Shown here in pieces: positions 1 to 37,458 of a stretch of DNA of 64,000 nt. The position numbers were made by a program, and so were the translations under genes. The notes under the pieces are model-generated. The model searched no databases. It saw only the letters and a program-made list of their open reading frames with translations, and had not been told where the DNA came from. Origin of the DNA: an uncultured Latescibacterota bacterium (lineage in GTDB: Bacteria; Latescibacterota; UBA2968). The DNA lies in NCBI GenBank assembly GCA_958295785.1, contig OY282377.1, positions 1,068,394 through 1,132,393 on the forward strand, given 5' to 3'. Within the stretch, counting starts at the first letter, position 1. Every line of letters starts with the position of its first letter.

Positions 1-1885
1 ACAATGCCTTGAGGCGCGCCATCGGCACGGGGGTCAAATCGGGTTCGCGCTCATCGACCTGCACGGCAAAGCGATCCGAAAGCCGCTCGCGTGCAAAAAT
101 CTCCCACAGGCCCGGCACATCCACCGCGCCCACCGGCCACGCGGATTGCAAGCCGCGTTGTTGCGGCCAAATCGTTTTCGGCTCTCGGCCCGGCGCGCGC
201 AAAACCGCTTCTGACGCATCCCCATCCCGAACATCTCGACGCACCACTTGCCCGACGCGATAGTCGGAACGCCCAAACGCGCCTGCGGCCAAATATCCGC
301 TTAGGCGATGCACAAAGGGCACAAAAAAGCCGGACAGGGGCGCGTCATTCCATCCCAAATTCGCGCTGACCGAGGACGCGAACAGCGCGACTCGACCCTT
401 GCCCTTGCGCGATTCGAGAAGCGCGGGCGCGCCCGATGTAAAGGACAACACGGGATATACATCTCGCCCGGGCCTTATCCGATACAAAACAAAAAAACGC
501 GGGCTTTGAAACGCGCCTTTGAGTTCGAGGCTCGATAGCATGGGATGATCGGGCAACACCGCTTGCAACGCCTGATAGGCCCCGGCCCTGGCGCCGCGTG
601 CGCCGAGCAAGGTGGCCGGGCAAAGTGCGGGCAACACGCGGTCATTGTAATGCCGGATATCGACCTGATCCCCCAAAAAGATCGCCAGCCCCATCCCGCG
701 CGAAACCCGGTTTTGCAACGCGGCAATCGCGCCCTCTGAAAACCGAGCGACATTGCACAAAAAAACCACATCCACACCATCCAACGCCTGCTCTGAGATG
801 TGGTCTGGTTTCATCTGCACCATCTCGGTAGAGACAACATCCAACGCCTGCGCGAGATAATACGCCTCATCCGGCGCGTCTGCAACGAGCAACACGCGCA
901 CTTGCTCCGGCACGCGCAACACGGTCACGCGCTGGTTGTCCGCCTCGAGATCGTCTTCTCCAATCTCCACGCGCAGGGCCACATCCCCGCCCGTTTCCGG
1001 CACAAACGGCGCGTGCAATTTTCGACGCCCCTCCGCAGGCACATGGGCAATGTGCTGTGCTACGCGCCGATCATCCAAAAATATCTGCACGGGCACACCG
1101 CCGCGATGGGTCGCGCCGTAATTGATCAGTTCAACCGCCAACGTGCTCGAACGCCCGACCTGCGGCGCGCTGACCTTGACCTGCCCAATGCCGATATTGG
1201 CAACTTGCGAGGGCCGCTCGGCAATGATGTACACGGACACGCCATCCAAATCCGCCAACGTATCGGGCAAACTCGCCCAGCCATTGGCCGCGCAATCCGT
1301 GACGCAATACAACTCGCGATTGGGCATCTGCGACTCGGTCAAATGCGACAGTGCCAGTTTCACGCCCGCCTCAAAATCCGTGCTGCCAAACCCGGGTTGC
1401 AACGCATTTAGATGCAAGCGCAACCGCGCTGGCGAAACCACATCGACCTCCTCAACCCCTTCGTCAACCAATGCCAGACGCACCTCGTCGCGCTCGTCGA
1501 ACATCGCCAACAACGCCTGCACCCTACGCAACGCGCGCTCAAACGCCATCCCCTCGGCCGTGCGGTATTGCATGCTCAGTGAACGGTCGAGCAAAATAAC
1601 CGCCGCCGTGCCCGCATCGCCCACCTGCCCGCTGCCCCCGCTCAAAGTTGGGCGCGCAAACGCCAACACCAGCAACACAATGAGCAGGGTTCGCAAAATG
1701 AGCAACAACAGTTGCTTCACTTTTATCCGTCGCATGCGGTCGTGCTGAAGGGCCTGTAGCAACACTACATTTGAAAACGATACTGTAACCGTGCGCCGTC
1801 GATTCAGCAAATGGATCACAAGCGGCAACAGCGCGGCCCACAAGCCGTATAGCAGCGTTGGATTTGTGAATGAAAGACCGAACAT
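1..1885 (-). CDS. BatA-like membrane protein with von Willebrand factor A domain (3' end outside window)
   Basis: A 628-codon open frame runs off the left edge of the window, so the C-terminus is missing. The N-terminus (MFGLSFTNPTLLYGLWAALL) is the short double-transmembrane segment typical of BatA/aerotolerance-type proteins. A second hydrophobic stretch near residues 55-75 (LLLLILRTLLIVLLVLAFARP) follows. A VWA domain starts near residue 88 with an intact MIDAS motif, DRSLS. Downstream sequence resembles the extracytoplasmic and ThuA/GATase-like part of large BatA-type proteins. In this family such proteins usually sit beside a MoxR ATPase and a DUF58 protein, and these may lie outside the window. 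The start was chosen because the membrane segment begins there; the ribosome site is weak. The function is unknown beyond the fold. Confidence 0.85.
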   Translation of the reverse strand, partial: MFGLSFTNPTLLYGLWAALLPLVIHLLNRRRTVTVSFSNVVLLQALQHDRMRRIKVKQLLLLILRTLLIVLLVLAFARPTLSGGSGQVGDAGTAAVILLDRSLSMQYRTAEGMAFERALRRVQALLAMFDERDEVRLALVDEGVEEVDVVSPARLRLHLNALQPGFGSTDFEAGVKLALSHLTESQMPNRELYCVTDCAANGWASLPDTLADLDGVSVYIIAERPSQVANIGIGQVKVSAPQVGRSSTLAVELINYGATHRGGVPVQIFLDDRRVAQHIAHVPAEGRRKLHAPFVPETGGDVALRVEIGEDDLEADNQRVTVLRVPEQVRVLLVADAPDEAYYLAQALDVVSTEMVQMKPDHISEQALDGVDVVFLCNVARFSEGAIAALQNRVSRGMGLAIFLGDQVDIRHYNDRVLPALCPATLLGARGARAGAYQALQAVLPDHPMLSSLELKGAFQSPRFFVLYRIRPGRDVYPVLSFTSGAPALLESRKGKGRVALFASSVSANLGWNDAPLSGFFVPFVHRLSGYLAAGAFGRSDYRVGQVVRRDVRDGDASEAVLRAPGREPKTIWPQQRGLQSAWPVGAVDVPGLWEIFARERLSDRFAVQVDEREPDLTPVPMARLKAL

Positions 1886-2045
1886 TGGAAGGCAGTGGTC
1901 AGGGGTCAGTCCCCACCCAGCCACGAGGCGCGGATGGCTCGAAGGATGCAACAGACATAGCGGATGCGGGGTTGTGGGGTTAATCCGCGCAATCCCCTAA
2001 TCCGCGACAATCCGCAATCCAGACAAATGGGCGCGGTGAAAACAA

Positions 2046-2073
2046 AAAAACCTGCTTCACAGCAAAGCAGGTG
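2046..2073 (-). terminator. Rho-independent terminator of the PTS IIA gene
   Basis: Read on the minus strand, an 8-bp perfect stem (ACCTGCTT / AAGCAGGT) is followed by a T-rich run (TTTTTTGTTTT). It lies about 25 bp after the stop of the PTS IIA gene and separates it from the VWA gene downstream. Confidence 0.85.
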
Positions 2074-2097
2074 ATAAAATAAAATGTGCGACATCCA

Positions 2098-2559
2098 TCA
2101 GTATTTCTCGTCTTCTGATTCAATAATCGCCAGGGCCTCTTCGCGATCTCGAATATCGATCAAACGCTGTCTAAAATCTTCGCCTTTGAGCACCCTTGAG
2201 ATGCGTGCCAAGGCTTTGATATGCGGCCCTGACACATCCACTGGCGAGACCAAAAGAAAAAAAATGTAGGTCTTTTTGTCATCTAAAGAATCGAAATTGA
2301 TGCCCTCTGATTTGATGCCCAAAACGCCCCCCACGGATGTGGCGTATTCCGACTTTCCGTGGGGTATGGCGATCCCGTGTCCGACGCCTGTGCTCATAAT
2401 TTCTTCGCGGTACAACACCGCCTCGAGCACCTTATCGCGGTCGGTAATTTTGTCCCCGACTTCGAGGGCATCGACGAGCTCTTCGAGAATTTCCCGCTTG
2501 GTTTGCCCTTTCAGCCCAACAATAACCGATTTGCCCGACAAAATCTCCATCAATGTCAT
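2098..2559 (-). CDS. PTS fructose/nitrogen-type EIIA domain protein (PtsN-like)
   Basis: A 153-residue single-domain EIIA of the fructose/mannitol/PtsN class. The phosphorylatable histidine is H67 in the motif GIAIPHGKS. Such proteins accept phosphate from HPr and either pass it to a sugar permease or act as a regulator. No PTS permease or HPr gene is nearby, so a regulatory PtsN-like role is more likely than sugar uptake; that is inference. The start was set at the internal ATG because a good ribosome site (GAAGGAAGGG) precedes it. The frame is open 19 codons further upstream without a ribosome site. The gene has its own terminator. Confidence 0.9.
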   Translation of the reverse strand: MTLMEILSGKSVIVGLKGQTKREILEELVDALEVGDKITDRDKVLEAVLYREEIMSTGVGHGIAIPHGKSEYATSVGGVLGIKSEGINFDSLDDKKTYIFFLLVSPVDVSGPHIKALARISRVLKGEDFRQRLIDIRDREEALAIIESEDEKY

Positions 2560-2675
2560 GAATGCCCTTCCTTCAAGCCTTACGATGATGTGCGAGCGTC
2601 CTGCCCGTAGTGACAATCGGGAAAATAAAACGCCCTTTCAATGAAGTCAAGAAAATTAAGGGATATAATTAGAAA

Positions 2676-3736
2676 TAGGACTTACGCATGCTGAGTTAAA
2701 AAAGGGTGCAATTCCGTAAAATTTATCACTGCGTTTGGATTACTGTCAGTATCTGCTTAGCAGTCCCCTCAACGATACCCTGACCCATTTCGCCGACCAT
2801 AGCGAAGGGTTCAGTCATGATAGGATCAACCGCTATCTCGCCGGTGATCGTATCCCCCCCCGCTTGGTGTGGGAACACGTCAAAGACCACATCGCGCTGA
2901 CGCCTAAAGGCTATGTGATCTTTGATGACACGGTTTTAGACAAGCGACACGCACGCAAGATCGCGTGAGTGCGTCGTCAATAGAGCGGCAACGCCCAAGG
3001 CGTCATCAATGGCATCGGGGTGGTCACATGTGTCTATGTCAATCCGCAAGAGGATCGGTTCTGGCTGATTGACGATCGGATTTATGACCCGCAAGGCGAT
3101 GGCAAAACCAAATGGGATCCTCTCAAGGACATGCTCTCTGCGTTGGTCTATCAGAAGGGCCTCCCTTTTACCGGGGTCTTGATGGACAGTGGGTATGCGA
3201 CCAAAACAGTCATGCTACACATAGAGCAGATGCAAAAAACCTATTCTTGTCCCCTCAAGACGAACCGGCGCGTGGACGAGTAGGCAGGCACAACCCCCTA
3301 CCAGCGCGTAGATAGCTTAACTTGGACGAAAGCGGATCGCAAACAAGGCAAGCCTAAAATCAGAGGGGTCCCCAAAGACCACAAAGTGAAATTATTCCGG
3401 GTGGCGTCTTCTGATAGACGCACGGCGTATGTCGTGACCAACGACCATGCTCAAAACGATTCTTCAGGGGTACAACAGGTGTGTCACCAACGATGGAAAA
3501 TTGAGCCATTTCACCGCGAAGTCAAACAAGTGACCGGGCTTGAAAAGTGTCAATGTCGGTTGGCACGCATGGTACGAAATCATATTGGGTGTGCGATGTT
3601 CGTTTGGATTCGACTCGCGCAGGTGGCCTATCAAACAGGACAAACCATTTATCAAGTCAAATACCGAGGGCTGGCTGACTTCTTGAGACAACAACTCAAA
3701 GCACCTCATATTCCAATGGAAATTGCGTAAGTCCTA
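2676..3736 (+). mobile_element. Decayed insertion sequence, copy A (IS4/IS701-like)
   Basis: 1061 bp bounded by the inverted repeat TAGGACTTACGCA and flanked by a 7-bp direct repeat TTAGAAA (2669-2675 and 3737-3743). It is about 31 bp shorter than copies B (20848-21939) and C (33622-34713) because a deletion near 2730 removed the transposase ribosome site and start codon. It inserted at the edge of the repeat at 3737-3862. It is the most diverged of the three copies and so probably the oldest. Confidence 0.95.
2735..3730 (+). pseudogene. Dead transposase of IS copy A
   Basis: Homologous along its whole length to the 338-residue transposase of copy C. It lacks the native start (deletion), has a stop codon replacing a Leu codon after KRHARKIA (near 2966), and carries further stops and length changes near 3280-3350. 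The DDE region is partly recognisable: the first aspartate in FDDTVLDKR, the second in LMDSGYATK and the glutamate in the RWKIE stretch. No full-length product can be made. Confidence 0.95.
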
Positions 3737-20847: not shown

Positions 20848-21939
20848 TAGGACTTACGCAATCACCATTGGAATATGAGGTGCTTTGAGTTGTTGTCTCA
20901 AGAAGTCAGCCACCCCCCGGTATTTGACTTGATAAATGGTTTGTCCTGTTTGATAGGCCACCTGCGCGAGTCTTATCCAAACTAACATCGCACACCCAAT
21001 ATGATTTCGTACCATGCGTGCCAACCGGCATTGACACTTTTCAAGCCCGGTCACCTGTTTGACTTCGCGGTGAAATGGCTCAATTTTCCATCTTTGGTGA
21101 CACACCTGTTGTACCACTGAAGAATCGTTTTGAGCCTGGTCGTTCGTCACGACATACGCCGTGCGTCTGGCAGCAGACGCCACCCGGAATCATTTCACTT
21201 TGTGGTCTTTGGGGAACCCTCTGATTTTAATTGACTTGCCTTGTTTGCGTTGCGCTTTCGTCCAAGTTAAGCTATCTACGCGCTGGTAGGGGATTGTGCC
21301 TGCCGAATCGTCCACGCGCCGGTTCGTCTTGAGGGGACAGTAATAGGTTTTTTGCATCTGCTCTATGTGTAGCATGACCGTTTTAGTCGCATACCAACTG
21401 TCCATCAAGACCCCGGTAAAAGGAAGGCGCTTCTGATAGACCAACCCAGAGAGCATGTCCTTGAGATGATCCAATTTGGTTTTGCCATCGCCTTGCGGAT
21501 CATAAATCCGATAGTCAATCAGCCAGAACCGATCCTCTTGCGGATTGACATAGACACATGTGACCACCCCGATGCCGTTGATGACGCCTTGGGCGTTGCC
21601 GCTATATTGACGGCGCACTAACGCGATCTTGCGAGCGTGTCGCTTGTCTAAAACCGTGTCATCAAAGATCACATAGCCTTTGGGCGTCAACGCGATGTGG
21701 TCTTTGACGTGTTCCCACACCAAGCGGGGCGGGATACGCTCACCGGCGAGATAGCGGTTGATCATATCATGACTGAACCCTTCGCTATGGTCGGCGAAAT
21801 GGGTCAGGGTATAGTTGAGGGGACTGCTAAGCAGATACTGACAGTAATCCAAACGCGTCGGTCGGTCCATTGACACCTCCTCAAAGTGATAAATTTTACG
21901 GAATTGCACCCTTTTTTAACTCAGCATGCGTAAGTCCTA
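20848..21939 (-). mobile_element. Insertion sequence copy B (IS4/IS701-like), transposase inactivated
   Basis: 1092 bp, inverted repeats TAGGACTTACGCA, and a 5-bp direct repeat ACAAA at 20843-20847 and 21940-21944. It is nearly identical to copy C and clearly younger than copy A. It disrupts the small gene at 20600-22101. Confidence 0.96.
20854..21870 (-). pseudogene. Transposase of IS copy B with one nonsense mutation
   Basis: Collinear with the intact 338-residue transposase of copy C. The start MDRPTRLDYC follows a GAGGAGG ribosome site. One base change turns the Leu codon TTA after FPKDHKVK into TGA (21190-21192), truncating the protein at about two thirds, before the catalytic glutamate. 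The remaining frame (VASAARRTAYVV onward) is intact, so the lesion is recent. The copy could still move in trans if copy C supplies transposase. Confidence 0.93.
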
Positions 21940-33621: not shown

Positions 33622-34713
33622 TAGGACTTACGCATGCTGAGTTAAAAAAGGGTGCAATTCCGTAAAATTTATCACTTTGAGGAGGTATCAATGCGCCACC
33701 CGACGCGTTTGGATTACTGTCAGTATCTGCTTAGCAGTCCCCTCAACTATACGCTGACCCATTTCGCCGACCATAGCGAAGGGTTCAGTCATGATATGAT
33801 CAACCGCTATCTCGCCGGTGCGCGTATCCCACCCCGCTTGGTGTGGGAACACGTCAAAGACCACATCGCGTTGACGCCTGAAGGCTATGTGATCTTTGAT
33901 GACCCGGTTTTAGACAAGCGACACGCACGCAAGATCGCGTTAGTGCGCCGTCAATATAGCGGCAACGCCCAAGGCGTCATCAATGGCATTGGGGTGGTCA
34001 CATGTGTCTATGTCAATCCGCAACAGGATCGGTTCTGGCTGATTGACTATCGGATTTATGACCCGCAAGGCGATGGCAAAACCAAATTGGATCATCTCAA
34101 GGACATGCTCTCTGGGTTGGTCTATCAGAAGGACCTTCCTTTTACCGGGGTCTTGATGGACAGTTGGTATGCGACCAAAACGGTCATGCGACACATAGAG
34201 CAGATGCAAAAAACCTATTATTGTCCCCTCAAGACGAACCGGCGCGTGGACGATTCGGCAGGCACAATCCCCTACCAGCGCGTAGATAGCTTAACTTGGA
34301 CTCAAGCGGAGCGCAAACAAGGCAAGTCCATTAAAATCAGAGGGTTTCCCAAAGACCACAAAGTGAAATTATTCCGGGTGGCGTCTGCTGCCAGACGCAC
34401 GGCGTATGTCGTGACCAACGACCATGCTCAAAACGATTCTTCAGTGGTACAAAAGGTGTGTCACCGGCGATGGAAAATTGAGCAATTTCACCGCGAAGTC
34501 AAACAAGTGACCGGGCTTGAAAAGTGTCAATGTCGGTTGGCACGCATTGTACGAAATCATATTGGGTGTGCGATGTTAGTTTGGATAAGACTCGAGCAGG
34601 TGGCCTATCAAACAGGACAAACCATTTATCAAGTCAAATACCGAGGGCTGGCTGACTTCTTGAGACAACAACTCAAAGCACCTCATATTCCAATGGTGAT
34701 TGCGTAAGTCCTA
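33622..34713 (+). mobile_element. Intact insertion sequence copy C (IS4/IS701-like)
   Basis: 1092 bp with inverted repeats TAGGACTTACGCA and a 6-bp direct repeat TAAAGA at 33616-33621 and 34714-34719. The single reading frame is intact, so this copy is potentially active. Confidence 0.97.
33691..34707 (+). CDS. DDE transposase of IS copy C
   Basis: 338 residues starting MRHPTRLDYCQYLLSSPLNY with GAGGAGG 7 bp upstream. Candidate catalytic residues: an aspartate in VIFDDPVLDKR, D in VLMDSWYATK, and E in RWKIEQFHREVKQ (Y-x2-R-x3-E-like context). In copies A and B the first motif reads FDDTVLDKR; here Thr is Pro, a change next to the presumed first catalytic aspartate. This may lower activity although the frame is open. 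The protein resembles IS701/IS4-type transposases, particularly of cyanobacteria; the family placement is from memory of motifs. Confidence 0.92.
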   Translation: MRHPTRLDYCQYLLSSPLNYTLTHFADHSEGFSHDMINRYLAGARIPPRLVWEHVKDHIALTPEGYVIFDDPVLDKRHARKIALVRRQYSGNAQGVINGIGVVTCVYVNPQQDRFWLIDYRIYDPQGDGKTKLDHLKDMLSGLVYQKDLPFTGVLMDSWYATKTVMRHIEQMQKTYYCPLKTNRRVDDSAGTIPYQRVDSLTWTQAERKQGKSIKIRGFPKDHKVKLFRVASAARRTAYVVTNDHAQNDSSVVQKVCHRRWKIEQFHREVKQVTGLEKCQCRLARIVRNHIGCAMLVWIRLEQVAYQTGQTIYQVKYRGLADFLRQQLKAPHIPMVIA

Positions 34714-34740
34714 TAAAGAGTTGAAACCATCGCGTCCTTG

Positions 34741-34972
34741 TCCGTATCTTAACCTCGCCTGTTTGGAAACCTACGTTACCGGCTGGAAGGTACTGGGCGG
34801 AAAATCTGCATATCTTCCAGCCGGCCAAATGCTAGGGTCTCGGTATCCGAAAGGACCGAGTTTTAATGAGATTTTCAAGCAGGTAGCCTGTGGTATTTGG
34901 TCGGCCTATCCGAAAATCAACCGCGTGTCGCTGTATTGTGGCATTCGGTTTTTTGTTTTGTTTTTTTTTCGC
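34741..34972 (+). ncRNA. Candidate structured leader RNA upstream of the CARDB protein gene
   Basis: A perfect 11-bp stem (CCGGCTGGAAG 34779-34789 with CTTCCAGCCGG 34814-34824) is followed by a second hairpin (CTCGGT..CC, GAAA tetraloop, GGACCGAG, 34839-34860). A possible long-range pairing joins GGCCAAAT (34822-34829) and ATTTGGTCGGCC (near 34895). A last weak stem (CCGAA / TTCGG) is followed by TTTTTTGTTTTGTTTTTTTTT. The order of stems and the U-tract, about 80 bp before the gene, look like an attenuating leader. It matches none of the riboswitch consensus sequences I could recall. Confidence 0.45.
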
Positions 34973-35052
34973 AGGTTATATATTCCCTCTCGTCAATACA
35001 TCCATCTACTCGTGAGATGGCCCCCTGTATCCCCAACGCAAAGGAGATAGCT

Positions 35053-37458
35053 ATGCGTAGTAAACGGATTGTGGCAATGGGCTTGTTGATGACCGCACTG
35101 ACCGTGCTGGTCTTTGTGGGTGATCAGGCCGCTGCTGAGCCCGATGTCAATGCGGGCGCGACCACTGGGGAATCTTCCCCGAGTTCTGAACGGCGTGCAA
35201 AAGTTGCCGCTGGCCCCAATGCCAATGCTGTTCTGTCTTTGGATATTGACGCTAGTGGGAATAAAATGGATGACGGTAATACATCGGGTACTATTGGTGC
35301 TGGTACCGATACCGTTGTCGTCGAGGTGTTTATCAGTGGATTGGCAGGTCCTATTAACGGTGGTTTGTTGTCCTTTGATACGGATATGCTGACTGTCAAA
35401 AGTGTGGCTGTAGGTAAAGGATTACTTTTGGATGATCCCGCTACAACTGCTAGTATTAGTATTGGTATTATCCCTGCTGATAGCTTGACCAATGGTCATT
35501 TTGCGACTGTTACGTTTATGACTGATTCTGATGTAACAGGTATGGAGTTCAAAGTTGGTGCTAGTGTGAAGGGTTTGGCTGCTGCTAGTGGTGGAAGAGA
35601 CACGCTTATCGCGGAGATGCCCTTGACTTTTAATGCGCCTACTACAGGTGCCGCTGGCCCCAATGCCAATGCTGTTCTGTCTTTGGATATTGACGCTAGT
35701 GGGAATAAAATGGATGACGGTAATACATCGGGCACTGTTGCGGGTTCTGGTACCGATGTTGTCGTTGAGGTGTTTATCAGTGGATTGGCAGGTCCTATTA
35801 GCGGTGGTGTGTTGTCCTTTGATACGGATATGCTGACTGTCAAAAGTGTGGCTGTAGGTAAAGGATTTCTTTTTGGTAATACCGATACAACTGCTAGTAT
35901 TGGTATTATCCCTGCTGATAGCTTGACCAATGGTCATTTTGCGACTGTTACGTTTATGACTGCTTCTGATGTAACAGGTATGGAGTTCCAAGTTGGTGCC
36001 AGTGTGAGTAATTTGGCTGCTGCTAGTGGTGAAACTGACATGCTTACCGCGGAGATGCCCTTGACTTTTAATGCGCCTACTACCGGTGCCGCTGGCCCCA
36101 ATGCCAATGCTGTTCTGTCTTTGGATATTGACGATAGTGGGAATAAAATGGATGACGGTAATACATCGGGTACTATTGGTGCTGGTACCGATGTTGTCGT
36201 CGAGGTGTTTATCAGTAGATTGGCAGGTCCTATTAGCGGTGGTGTGTTGTCCTTTGATACGGATATGCTGACTGTCAAAAGTGTGGCTGTAGGTGCAGGA
36301 ACTCTTTTGGGTACCGCTACAACTGCTAATATTAGTATTGATATTATCCCTGCTGCTGACTTGACCAATGATCATTTGGCGACTGTTACGTTTATGACTG
36401 CTTCTGATGTAACAGGTATGGAGTTCAAAGTTGGTGCCAGTGTGAGTAATTTGGCTGCTGCTAGTGGTGGAAGAGACACGCTTATCGCGGCGATACCCTT
36501 GACTTTTAATACCCCCACGCCCGATTTTGATGGCGATGGCACGGTTGGCTTTTCCGACTTTTTGGCGGTTGCAGGGCAATATGGAACGCGGAAAGGGGAT
36601 GGCATATACCAAGCCAGGTATGATTTGAATAGCGATGGCGCGATAGACGTTTCTGATATTCTGATTTTTGCCGGCAGTTTTGGCGGCCCAGTATCGCCTC
36701 CTGGCGGGGGCGGTGTCAGTAGTAGTCCCGACCTGATTGTTGAATCGCCTTCGGTCAACGATAGTACCTTGACGACCGGGCAATCCTTCACCCTGCGTGC
36801 CACGGTTCGCAACTCGGGTACGGGACGGTCGGCCTCAACGACCTTGCGCTATTACCGTTCGTCCAATTCGACGATCAACACGAGTGGTGATACGGAAGTC
36901 GGCACAGATAGCGTGAGTGGTCTGTCGGCTTCGGGCACGAGTGCTGAGTCGATCAGTCTGACTGCCCCATCGAGTGCGGGGACGTATTACTACGGCGCGT
37001 GCGTGGCGAGCGTCAGCGAGGAGAGCAATACAAACAACAACTGCTCAACCGGCGTGCGCGTCACGGTGAGCAGTGGCAGCGGTGGTGGCAGTAGTCGTCC
37101 CGATCTGATTGTTGAATCGCCTTCGGTCAGCGATAGTACCTTGACGACCGGGCAATCCTTCACCCTGCGTGCCACGGTTCGCAACTCGGGTACGGGACGG
37201 TCGGCCTCAACGACCCTGCGCTATTATCGCTCGGCCAATCCGACGATCACCGCGCTCGATACGGAAGTCGGCACGGATTCGATCAGCGGTCTGTCGGCTT
37301 CGGCGACCAGTGCTGAGTCGATCAGTCTGACTGCCCCATCGAGTGCGGGGATGTATTACTACGGCGCGTGCGTGGCGAACGTCAGCGGGGAGAGCGATAC
37401 CCGCAACAACTGCTCGGATGGCGTGCGCGTCACGGTGAGCAGTGGTGGCGGGGGGTAG
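35053..37458 (+). CDS. Secreted cohesin-like/dockerin/CARDB repeat protein, C-terminus out of frame
   Basis: 801 residues as read. A signal peptide (RIVAMGLLMTALTVLVFVG) is followed by three near-identical repeats of about 147 residues (DNA 35206, 35650, 36088), each with LSFDTDMLTVKSVAVG and LTNGHFATVTFMT, cohesin-like in pattern. Next comes a dockerin-like pair of calcium loops (DFDGDGTVGFSDFL and DLNSDGAIDVSDIL, near residues 492-545). Two CARDB domains of about 120 residues follow (ARD-type; SFTLRATVRNSGTGRSASTT). A stop follows a run of six G at 37450-37455. Removing one G joins the frame to a conserved cysteine-containing tail ending at 37660. AAAGGAGAT precedes the ATG. A surface adhesin or scaffold is likely. 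Confidence 0.87.
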   Translation: MRSKRIVAMGLLMTALTVLVFVGDQAAAEPDVNAGATTGESSPSSERRAKVAAGPNANAVLSLDIDASGNKMDDGNTSGTIGAGTDTVVVEVFISGLAGPINGGLLSFDTDMLTVKSVAVGKGLLLDDPATTASISIGIIPADSLTNGHFATVTFMTDSDVTGMEFKVGASVKGLAAASGGRDTLIAEMPLTFNAPTTGAAGPNANAVLSLDIDASGNKMDDGNTSGTVAGSGTDVVVEVFISGLAGPISGGVLSFDTDMLTVKSVAVGKGFLFGNTDTTASIGIIPADSLTNGHFATVTFMTASDVTGMEFQVGASVSNLAAASGETDMLTAEMPLTFNAPTTGAAGPNANAVLSLDIDDSGNKMDDGNTSGTIGAGTDVVVEVFISRLAGPISGGVLSFDTDMLTVKSVAVGAGTLLGTATTANISIDIIPAADLTNDHLATVTFMTASDVTGMEFKVGASVSNLAAASGGRDTLIAAIPLTFNTPTPDFDGDGTVGFSDFLAVAGQYGTRKGDGIYQARYDLNSDGAIDVSDILIFAGSFGGPVSPPGGGGVSSSPDLIVESPSVNDSTLTTGQSFTLRATVRNSGTGRSASTTLRYYRSSNSTINTSGDTEVGTDSVSGLSASGTSAESISLTAPSSAGTYYYGACVASVSEESNTNNNCSTGVRVTVSSGSGGGSSRPDLIVESPSVSDSTLTTGQSFTLRATVRNSGTGRSASTTLRYYRSANPTITALDTEVGTDSISGLSASATSAESISLTAPSSAGMYYYGACVANVSGESDTRNNCSDGVRVTVSSGGGG

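What the first reader, a model, noticed from the sequence alone, without database searches (positions are those of the whole stretch)
34741..34972. Unassigned structured leader RNA
A perfect 11-bp stem, a GAAA-capped hairpin with a bulge, a possible long-range pairing and a final U-tract precede the surface-protein gene. The structure is more elaborate than a plain terminator and fits no riboswitch consensus I recall.
Basis: seen in the sequence. Interest (0 to 1): 0.55.

Follow-up and report, generated by a model that had tools for sequence, protein, structure and literature searches.

The report
C4-like antisense RNA in bacterial chromosome
A stretch of DNA next to a surface-protein gene encodes a small folded RNA, present in several copies in a little-studied group of bacteria, that is built like the antisense 'immunity' RNA of phage P1, except that the only partner we can find for its antisense strand is its own front end.

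Summary
The structure is real. Window 34741-34972 folds far better than shuffles and has seven other full-length homologues: one elsewhere in the same chromosome and two in each of three genomes of the same genus (Latescibacterota). It looks like a small-RNA gene with its own promoter and terminator; other copies lie beside other genes. The helix sequence differs from copy to copy, yet each leader fits its own copy (2 of 40,320 permutations as good). It excludes a second nested fold: a 13-bp stem closing the GAAA hairpin and a variable hairpin. That fold plus leader has the layout of phage C4 antisense RNA (leader a1/b1, then C4 core). Rfam c4-2 is the best library match, and over 64 genomes six of its seven hits are these RNAs, but all score below its gathering threshold (at most 33 vs 41 bits). 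The downstream a2/b2 target site of true C4 loci is absent. Verdict: works like C4, probably homologous, a diverged chromosomal variant without a detectable target. The mechanism (self-masked antisense RNA) is inferred.

The parts
34721..34750 (+). putative sigma-70 promoter of the RNA: TTGAAA (34721-34726), 18-nt spacer, TATCTT (34745-34750)
   Evidence: pattern scan, 9 of 12 matches; a promoter-like pair lies at the same place in the other seven copies, with a TTGC.. first hexamer in six of them (read by eye)
34756..34771 (+). leader strand P1a (a1/b1-like), pairs with 34871-34885
   Evidence: duplex -21.6 kcal/mol, 0 of 500 leader shuffles as good; copy-specific in 8 copies
34778..34824 (+).
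34820..34832 (+). P3 5' strand (closing stem of the C4-like fold)
   Evidence: 13 pairs, 99% of cells paired in 8 copies, 2 pairs changed on both sides
34836..34860 (+). short inner stem 5' strand (GGTC) and GAAA-tetraloop hairpin P4 with 2-nt bulge, matching the c4-2 consensus
34861..34885 (+). variable region: place of the second hairpin P5 (hardly formed in this copy) and the b'/a'-like strand P1b (34871-34885)
   Evidence: local P5 pairing seen in the seven other copies
34885..34905 (+). inner stem 3' strand (AGCC 34885-34888) and P3 3' strand (34893-34905)
34919..34969 (+). intrinsic terminator hairpin and U-tract
   Evidence: (helix 5: 3 pairs changed on both sides)
35053..37458 (+). downstream surface protein gene (CARDB and dockerin domains); neighbour, not part of the conserved RNA unit
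33622..34713 (+). insertion sequence with DDE transposase (33652-34707), terminal inverted repeats TAGGACTTACGCA; ends 7 bp before the -35 box; neighbour, not part

Best explanation
The window holds a small-RNA gene (promoter 34721-34750, RNA about 34756-34969) that works like a phage C4/c4-2 antisense RNA with its a1/b1 leader, in a chromosome. The transcript has two nested folds that exclude each other. In fold A the 5' leader pairs with the loop, 3' arm and linker of the second hairpin (P1), and P2 covers the start of P3. In fold B a 13-bp stem (P3) closes a GAAA hairpin and a variable hairpin that exposes the antisense strand: the C4-like core. Shown: the gene layout, the conservation, the copy-specific co-varying P1, the co-varying P3/P4/terminator and the C4-like architecture. 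Inferred: descent from a phage C4/c4-2 unit; that the leader masks the antisense strand until processing or refolding frees it; and that the freed core acts in trans on an RNA that carries a leader-like sequence. No such target was found.
For: Eight full copies in 4 of 64 genomes; L062, not in the model, scored 150 bits. Leader/core duplex: own-copy mean -26.8 vs -15.1 kcal/mol over permutations, 2 of 40,320 as good (the second swaps L033/L034, which share the strand); in each copy 0 of 500 shuffled leaders as good. In 8 of 8 copies the leader, 124-137 nt 5' of the strand, is the best complement in the locus (621-3192 segments tested per copy); in phage P1 the same test picks the annotated a1/b1 leader at -145 first and a2/b2 second. 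Covariation of P3, P4, P5 and terminator: 95.2% of cells paired, score 0.211 vs 0.154, 0 of 500 shuffles. c4-2 model on 64 genomes: 7 hits at E <= 1, six of them these RNAs; L062 alone E 3.6e-5. Reciprocal: our model gives c4-2 of phage contig L120 36.8 bits and L118 24.7. Fold A is the minimum-energy fold in 8 of 8; fold B lies 3.7-9.5 kcal/mol above it.
Against: No copy reaches the c4-2 gathering score (best 33.3, window 20.3, needed 41); the window copy and L036 are not among the c4-2 hits. The C4 model finds nothing in 4 genomes at E <= 10, and c4-a1b1 was never reported for these loci. No downstream a2/b2-like site: own-copy duplexes with the 60, 120 or 300 nt after the terminator are no better than other copies'. 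No genome-wide excess of complements: 10 vs 8 in the control for the window copy, 9 vs 10 for L031. No phage context. The window copy lacks a clear local P5 hairpin. In the reciprocal search our model also gave 20.6 bits to a tRNA region of L120, so the 18.7 bits for c4-2 in L119 are at noise level. No expression data.
Confidence: 0.58

Rival explanations
1. A cis-acting leader: the two folds decide whether the terminator at 34919-34969 is read through into the surface-protein gene (attenuator or unknown riboswitch).
For: The surface gene starts 84 nt after the U-tract; two mutually exclusive folds. In the other seven copies a second RNA element (RNA-2) follows, and an open reading frame behind it.
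Against: The neighbouring downstream genes share no family (ankyrin, outer-membrane barrel, unknown). No pairing of the terminator arms with the rest of the RNA is kept in all copies (by eye). Four copies (L033, L034, L035, L062) carry a second terminator-like hairpin just behind the first (by eye), which fits a true stop. A possible TATATT box lies between terminator and gene (34979-34984).
Confidence: 0.2
2. A stand-alone small RNA unrelated to C4; the GAAA hairpin and two-hairpin layout are convergent.
For: All C4-clan scores are below threshold; no a2/b2 site; far from phages in context.
Against: c4-2 hits over 64 genomes fall almost only on these RNAs (6 of 7). The leader, bulge, tetraloop, second hairpin and linker all sit as in C4/c4-2.
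Confidence: 0.15
3. A decaying dispersed repeat (non-autonomous mobile element or gene-duplication debris) with no present function.
For: Many partial copies: 3' halves before surface paralogues, a 5' half (L014), reduced forms L065 and L059.
Against: In 8 full copies leader and core changed together, including the window copy, where nearly the whole helix sequence is replaced and still pairs.
Confidence: 0.07

Closest known systems
c4-2 RNA, Rfam RF02944 (clan CL00128), e.g. phage contigs L118-L120 of IMG/VR
   Same: UAU before a 4-bp stem, GG-bulge-GAAA hairpin, second hairpin, linker, outer closing stem. In L118 and L119 the leader repeat is complementary to hairpin-2 loop plus linker (complementarity read by eye).
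   Different: Scores below the gathering threshold; outer stem is 13 bp of other sequence; leader pairing runs through the hairpin's 3' arm; no second copy of the leader repeat after the core (present in 2 of 3 phage loci); chromosomal, with a separate terminator.
C4 antisense RNA of phages P1/P7 (RF01695) with a1/b1 leader (RF03163)
   Same: Order promoter - a1/b1 - C4 core, with the antisense parts in hairpin-2 loop and 3' linker; best local complement of that strand is the leader at about the same distance.
   Different: No match to either covariance model; GAAA instead of UUCG loop; no a2/b2 site and no icd/ant-like gene.
C4-like 'Group 1' small RNAs of Acinetobacter baumannii (PMC5320573, abstract and passages read)
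   Same: Several chromosomal copies with a variable antisense region; proposed there to target phage or host RNAs.
   Different: Those match the Rfam C4 motif and are expressed according to that paper; ours is below threshold, has no RNA-seq evidence, and has a co-varying leader in the same unit.

Membership tests
c4-2 (RF02944) | covariance-model score at or above 41 bits | tested here: not met
   best 33.3 (L062), window 20.3
c4-2 (RF02944) | core layout: outer stem, UAU, 4-bp stem, bulged GAAA hairpin, second hairpin, linker | tested here: met
   aligned end to end by cmscan in L031, L032 and L062; pairs counted on 8 copies; second hairpin not clear in the window copy
C4 clan | leader complementary to hairpin-2 loop and 3' linker | tested here: met
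   8 of 8 copies; phage P1 as control
C4 clan | second target site (a2/b2) downstream of the core, near a ribosome-binding site | tested here: not met
   no leader repeat in window, L031, L062; one 20-nt 85% repeat in L035
C4 (RF01695) | covariance-model match | tested here: not met
   0 of 4 genomes at E <= 10
c4-a1b1 (RF03163) | covariance-model match in the leader | tested here: not met
   not reported for window 34600-35100, L031-L036, L014, L062
C4 clan | phage or prophage location | tested here: not met
   no PHROG match in 8 of 8 neighbouring proteins tested; no match in phages, plasmids or viral contigs
C4 clan | 5' processing by RNase P | not testable with these tools
   needs experiment
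known riboswitch or other Rfam family | match at gathering score in the window | tested here: not met
   0 matches in 64 kb

The most novel reading that the evidence does not exclude
Latescibacterota chromosomes keep a small repertoire of domesticated C4-type antisense RNAs whose antisense strand diversifies from copy to copy, each carrying its own matching leader as built-in mask and 'self' target: an RNA-based, copy-specific immunity or regulation set acting on phage or mobile-element transcripts that carry the same leader sequence.
Probability: 0.15. Interest if true: 0.8.

Novelty: new variant of a known kind. Interest (0 to 1): 0.52.

Why it matters
C4 antisense RNAs are known from phages and, as chromosomal relatives, from A. 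baumannii. A C4-like unit in a distant, uncultured phylum that keeps and re-invents the leader/core pairing while lacking the classical target would suggest that this pairing has a job of its own, and offers a natural series of eight compensated variants with which to test what the a1/b1 leader does.

Tried and rejected
Insertion-sequence part: the element 33622-34713 ends before the promoter, and homologous RNAs lack it, so the RNA is not a piece of it. RNA-2 as the antisense target: own-copy duplexes are no better than other copies' (mean -15.7 vs -16.2; 4100 of 5040 permutations as good or better). Downstream a2/b2 site: negative. Genome-wide complements for the two G000 copies: no excess over the reversed-pattern control. 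Viral contigs, phages, plasmids: no match. The seventh c4-2 hit, L081 in another genus, is not one of these RNAs by eye. Contiguous-duplex control on phage c4-2 loci: the leader was not among the four best in L118 or L119 and ranked second in L120, probably because their pairing is bipartite; so that test supports the parallel for phage P1 only. No search for leader-like targets was made in viral collections (too little power).

Full report
WHAT IS THERE. The stretch folds better than all of 200 shuffles (z -3.9); the homologous stretch of L013/L031 does so more strongly (z -6.3).

HOMOLOGUES. Search of the own genome found six places (L002-L007) at 88-92% identity that carry only the 3' half, in front of paralogous surface genes, further partial ones (L008-L012), and two more distant places: L013 (the same place as L031), a full second copy, and L014, a 5' half. 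Search of 60 relatives with the L013 copy found matches in 4 genomes of the genus, own included. A covariance model R1 from seven copies, run over the 64 held genomes of the phylum, gave 25 matches at E <= 0.1 in 6 genomes. Eight are full-length (129.6-167.3 bits), two in each of four genomes of one genus that holds 11 of the 64 genomes. One of them, L062, was not in the model (150 bits). The rest are halves, reverse-strand matches or weak. In the collection of 84,980 species an exact pattern of the core hit 5 stretches, all Latescibacterota, on contigs of the same lengths as those of G008, G006 and G009 (the own genome may be left out there).

ARCHITECTURE. All eight copies have a promoter-like pair whose -10 box ends 26-37 nt before P2 (by eye; the window's TTGAAA-18-TATCTT scores 9 of 12) and a hairpin plus T-rich tail at the end. 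On an 8-row alignment the nested structure P3, inner stem, P4, P5 and terminator has 95.2% of cells paired, 8 pairs with changes on both sides and a covariation score of 0.211 against 0.154 in shuffles (0 of 500). The sequences are related and few, so this is moderate support; P5 is the weakest helix (86.8%).

THE LONG-RANGE HELIX. The leader between the -10 box and P2 pairs with the variable region after P4. Each leader binds its own strand at -21.6 to -31.2 kcal/mol; foreign combinations are weaker except between L033 and L034, which share the strand. Over all 40,320 permutations 2 are as good as the identity (itself and that swap). In each copy 0 of 500 shuffled leaders did as well. Pair lists are (15-20 pairs, mostly Watson-Crick, with letters that differ between copies). 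Scanning each locus (621-3192 segments) the leader is the best complement in 8 of 8 copies. The window copy has nearly its whole helix replaced and still pairs.

TWO FOLDS. Free folding gives P1+P2 in 8 of 8; forcing P3 gives a fold 3.7 to 9.5 kcal/mol less stable that contains the C4-like core. P1 and P3 cross, so together they would make a pseudoknot; these tools do not decide between a switch and a pseudoknot.

WHAT IT RESEMBLES. cmscan finds no family at gathering score. Below threshold the core matches c4-2 RNA: window 20.3, L031 30.9, L062 33.3 bits (threshold 41). Run over 64 genomes, c4-2 gave 7 hits at E <= 1, six on these RNAs (not the window copy, not L036) and none over the cut-off; 0 of 14 control genomes rang. 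The C4 model gave none in 4 genomes. In phage P1 the record annotates promoter, a1, b1, C4 RNA, a2, b2, icd in that order, and cmscan places C4 and c4-a1b1 there. In P1 the antisense parts lie in the loop of hairpin 2 and the linker behind it (read by eye), where our variable strand lies; the same complement scan puts P1's a1/b1 leader first and a2/b2 second. Three of five viral contigs found by a c4-2 pattern score 61.7-71.1 bits with c4-2; two of these three carry the leader sequence again after the core. Our model scored 36.8, 24.7 and 18.7 bits on those three, with a chance-level match at 20.6.

WHAT DIFFERS. No downstream copy of the leader site (a 20-nt, 85% repeat in L035 is the only hint and the region does not pair specifically), no target by genome-wide pattern search, no phage setting. 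Hence it is not filed as a member of c4-2 or C4; it works like them and is probably related.

SURROUNDINGS. The insertion sequence 33622-34713 (inverted repeats; TAAAGA on both sides) sits just upstream. The surface gene 35053-37458 has CARDB and dockerin domains. In the other seven copies a second conserved element, RNA-2, lies 117-268 nt downstream of the variable strand (7 of 7). RNA-2 has matches in 5 of 6 genomes searched (25 matches), several of them before genes with signal-peptide-like starts (by eye). It is not the copy-specific target.

LITERATURE. Rfam 15 paper: one passage naming c4-2. Weinberg 2010: two passages. A 2025 review of phage small RNAs: passages on C4. A. baumannii small RNAs: abstract and passages. 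The 2017 paper that, from memory, described c4-2 is not held. Searches for c4-2, RF02944, C4 antisense RNA, Poribacteria small RNA and Latescibacter RNA (listings only) showed no report of this RNA; only this open library was searched.

VERDICT. Real, conserved RNA (very likely); C4-like in build (likely); antisense action masked by its own leader (plausible, untested).

Noticed in passing
L062:1780-1945; also near L031-L036 and other loci: RNA-2: a second dispersed, conserved two-hairpin element without Rfam match, upstream of various secreted, ankyrin or unknown protein genes; 25 matches in 5 of 6 genomes.
   Followed up: partly
window 2676-3736, 20848-21939, 33622-34713: Three copies of one insertion sequence (inverted repeat TAGGACTTACGCA) in the window; the same end sequence also borders the upstream region of surface paralogues L008-L011.
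   Followed up: partly
L002-L007 (own genome): Surface-gene paralogues carry only the 3' half of the RNA (variable strand, P3 3' strand, terminator), apparently duplicated together with the gene.
   Followed up: partly
L033, L034, L035, L062, just after the first terminator: A second terminator-like hairpin (AACCGCGTG...CACGCGGT plus T-run, varying) follows the first.
   Followed up: no
L059 (G002), around 1495-1580 of the reverse strand: Degenerate 5' half of the RNA running directly into a ribosome-binding-site-like sequence and a short open reading frame.
   Followed up: no
L035:1461-1480 and 1643-1662: Leader sequence nearly repeated (17 of 20) right after the terminator; could be a remnant of a second target site.
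   Followed up: partly
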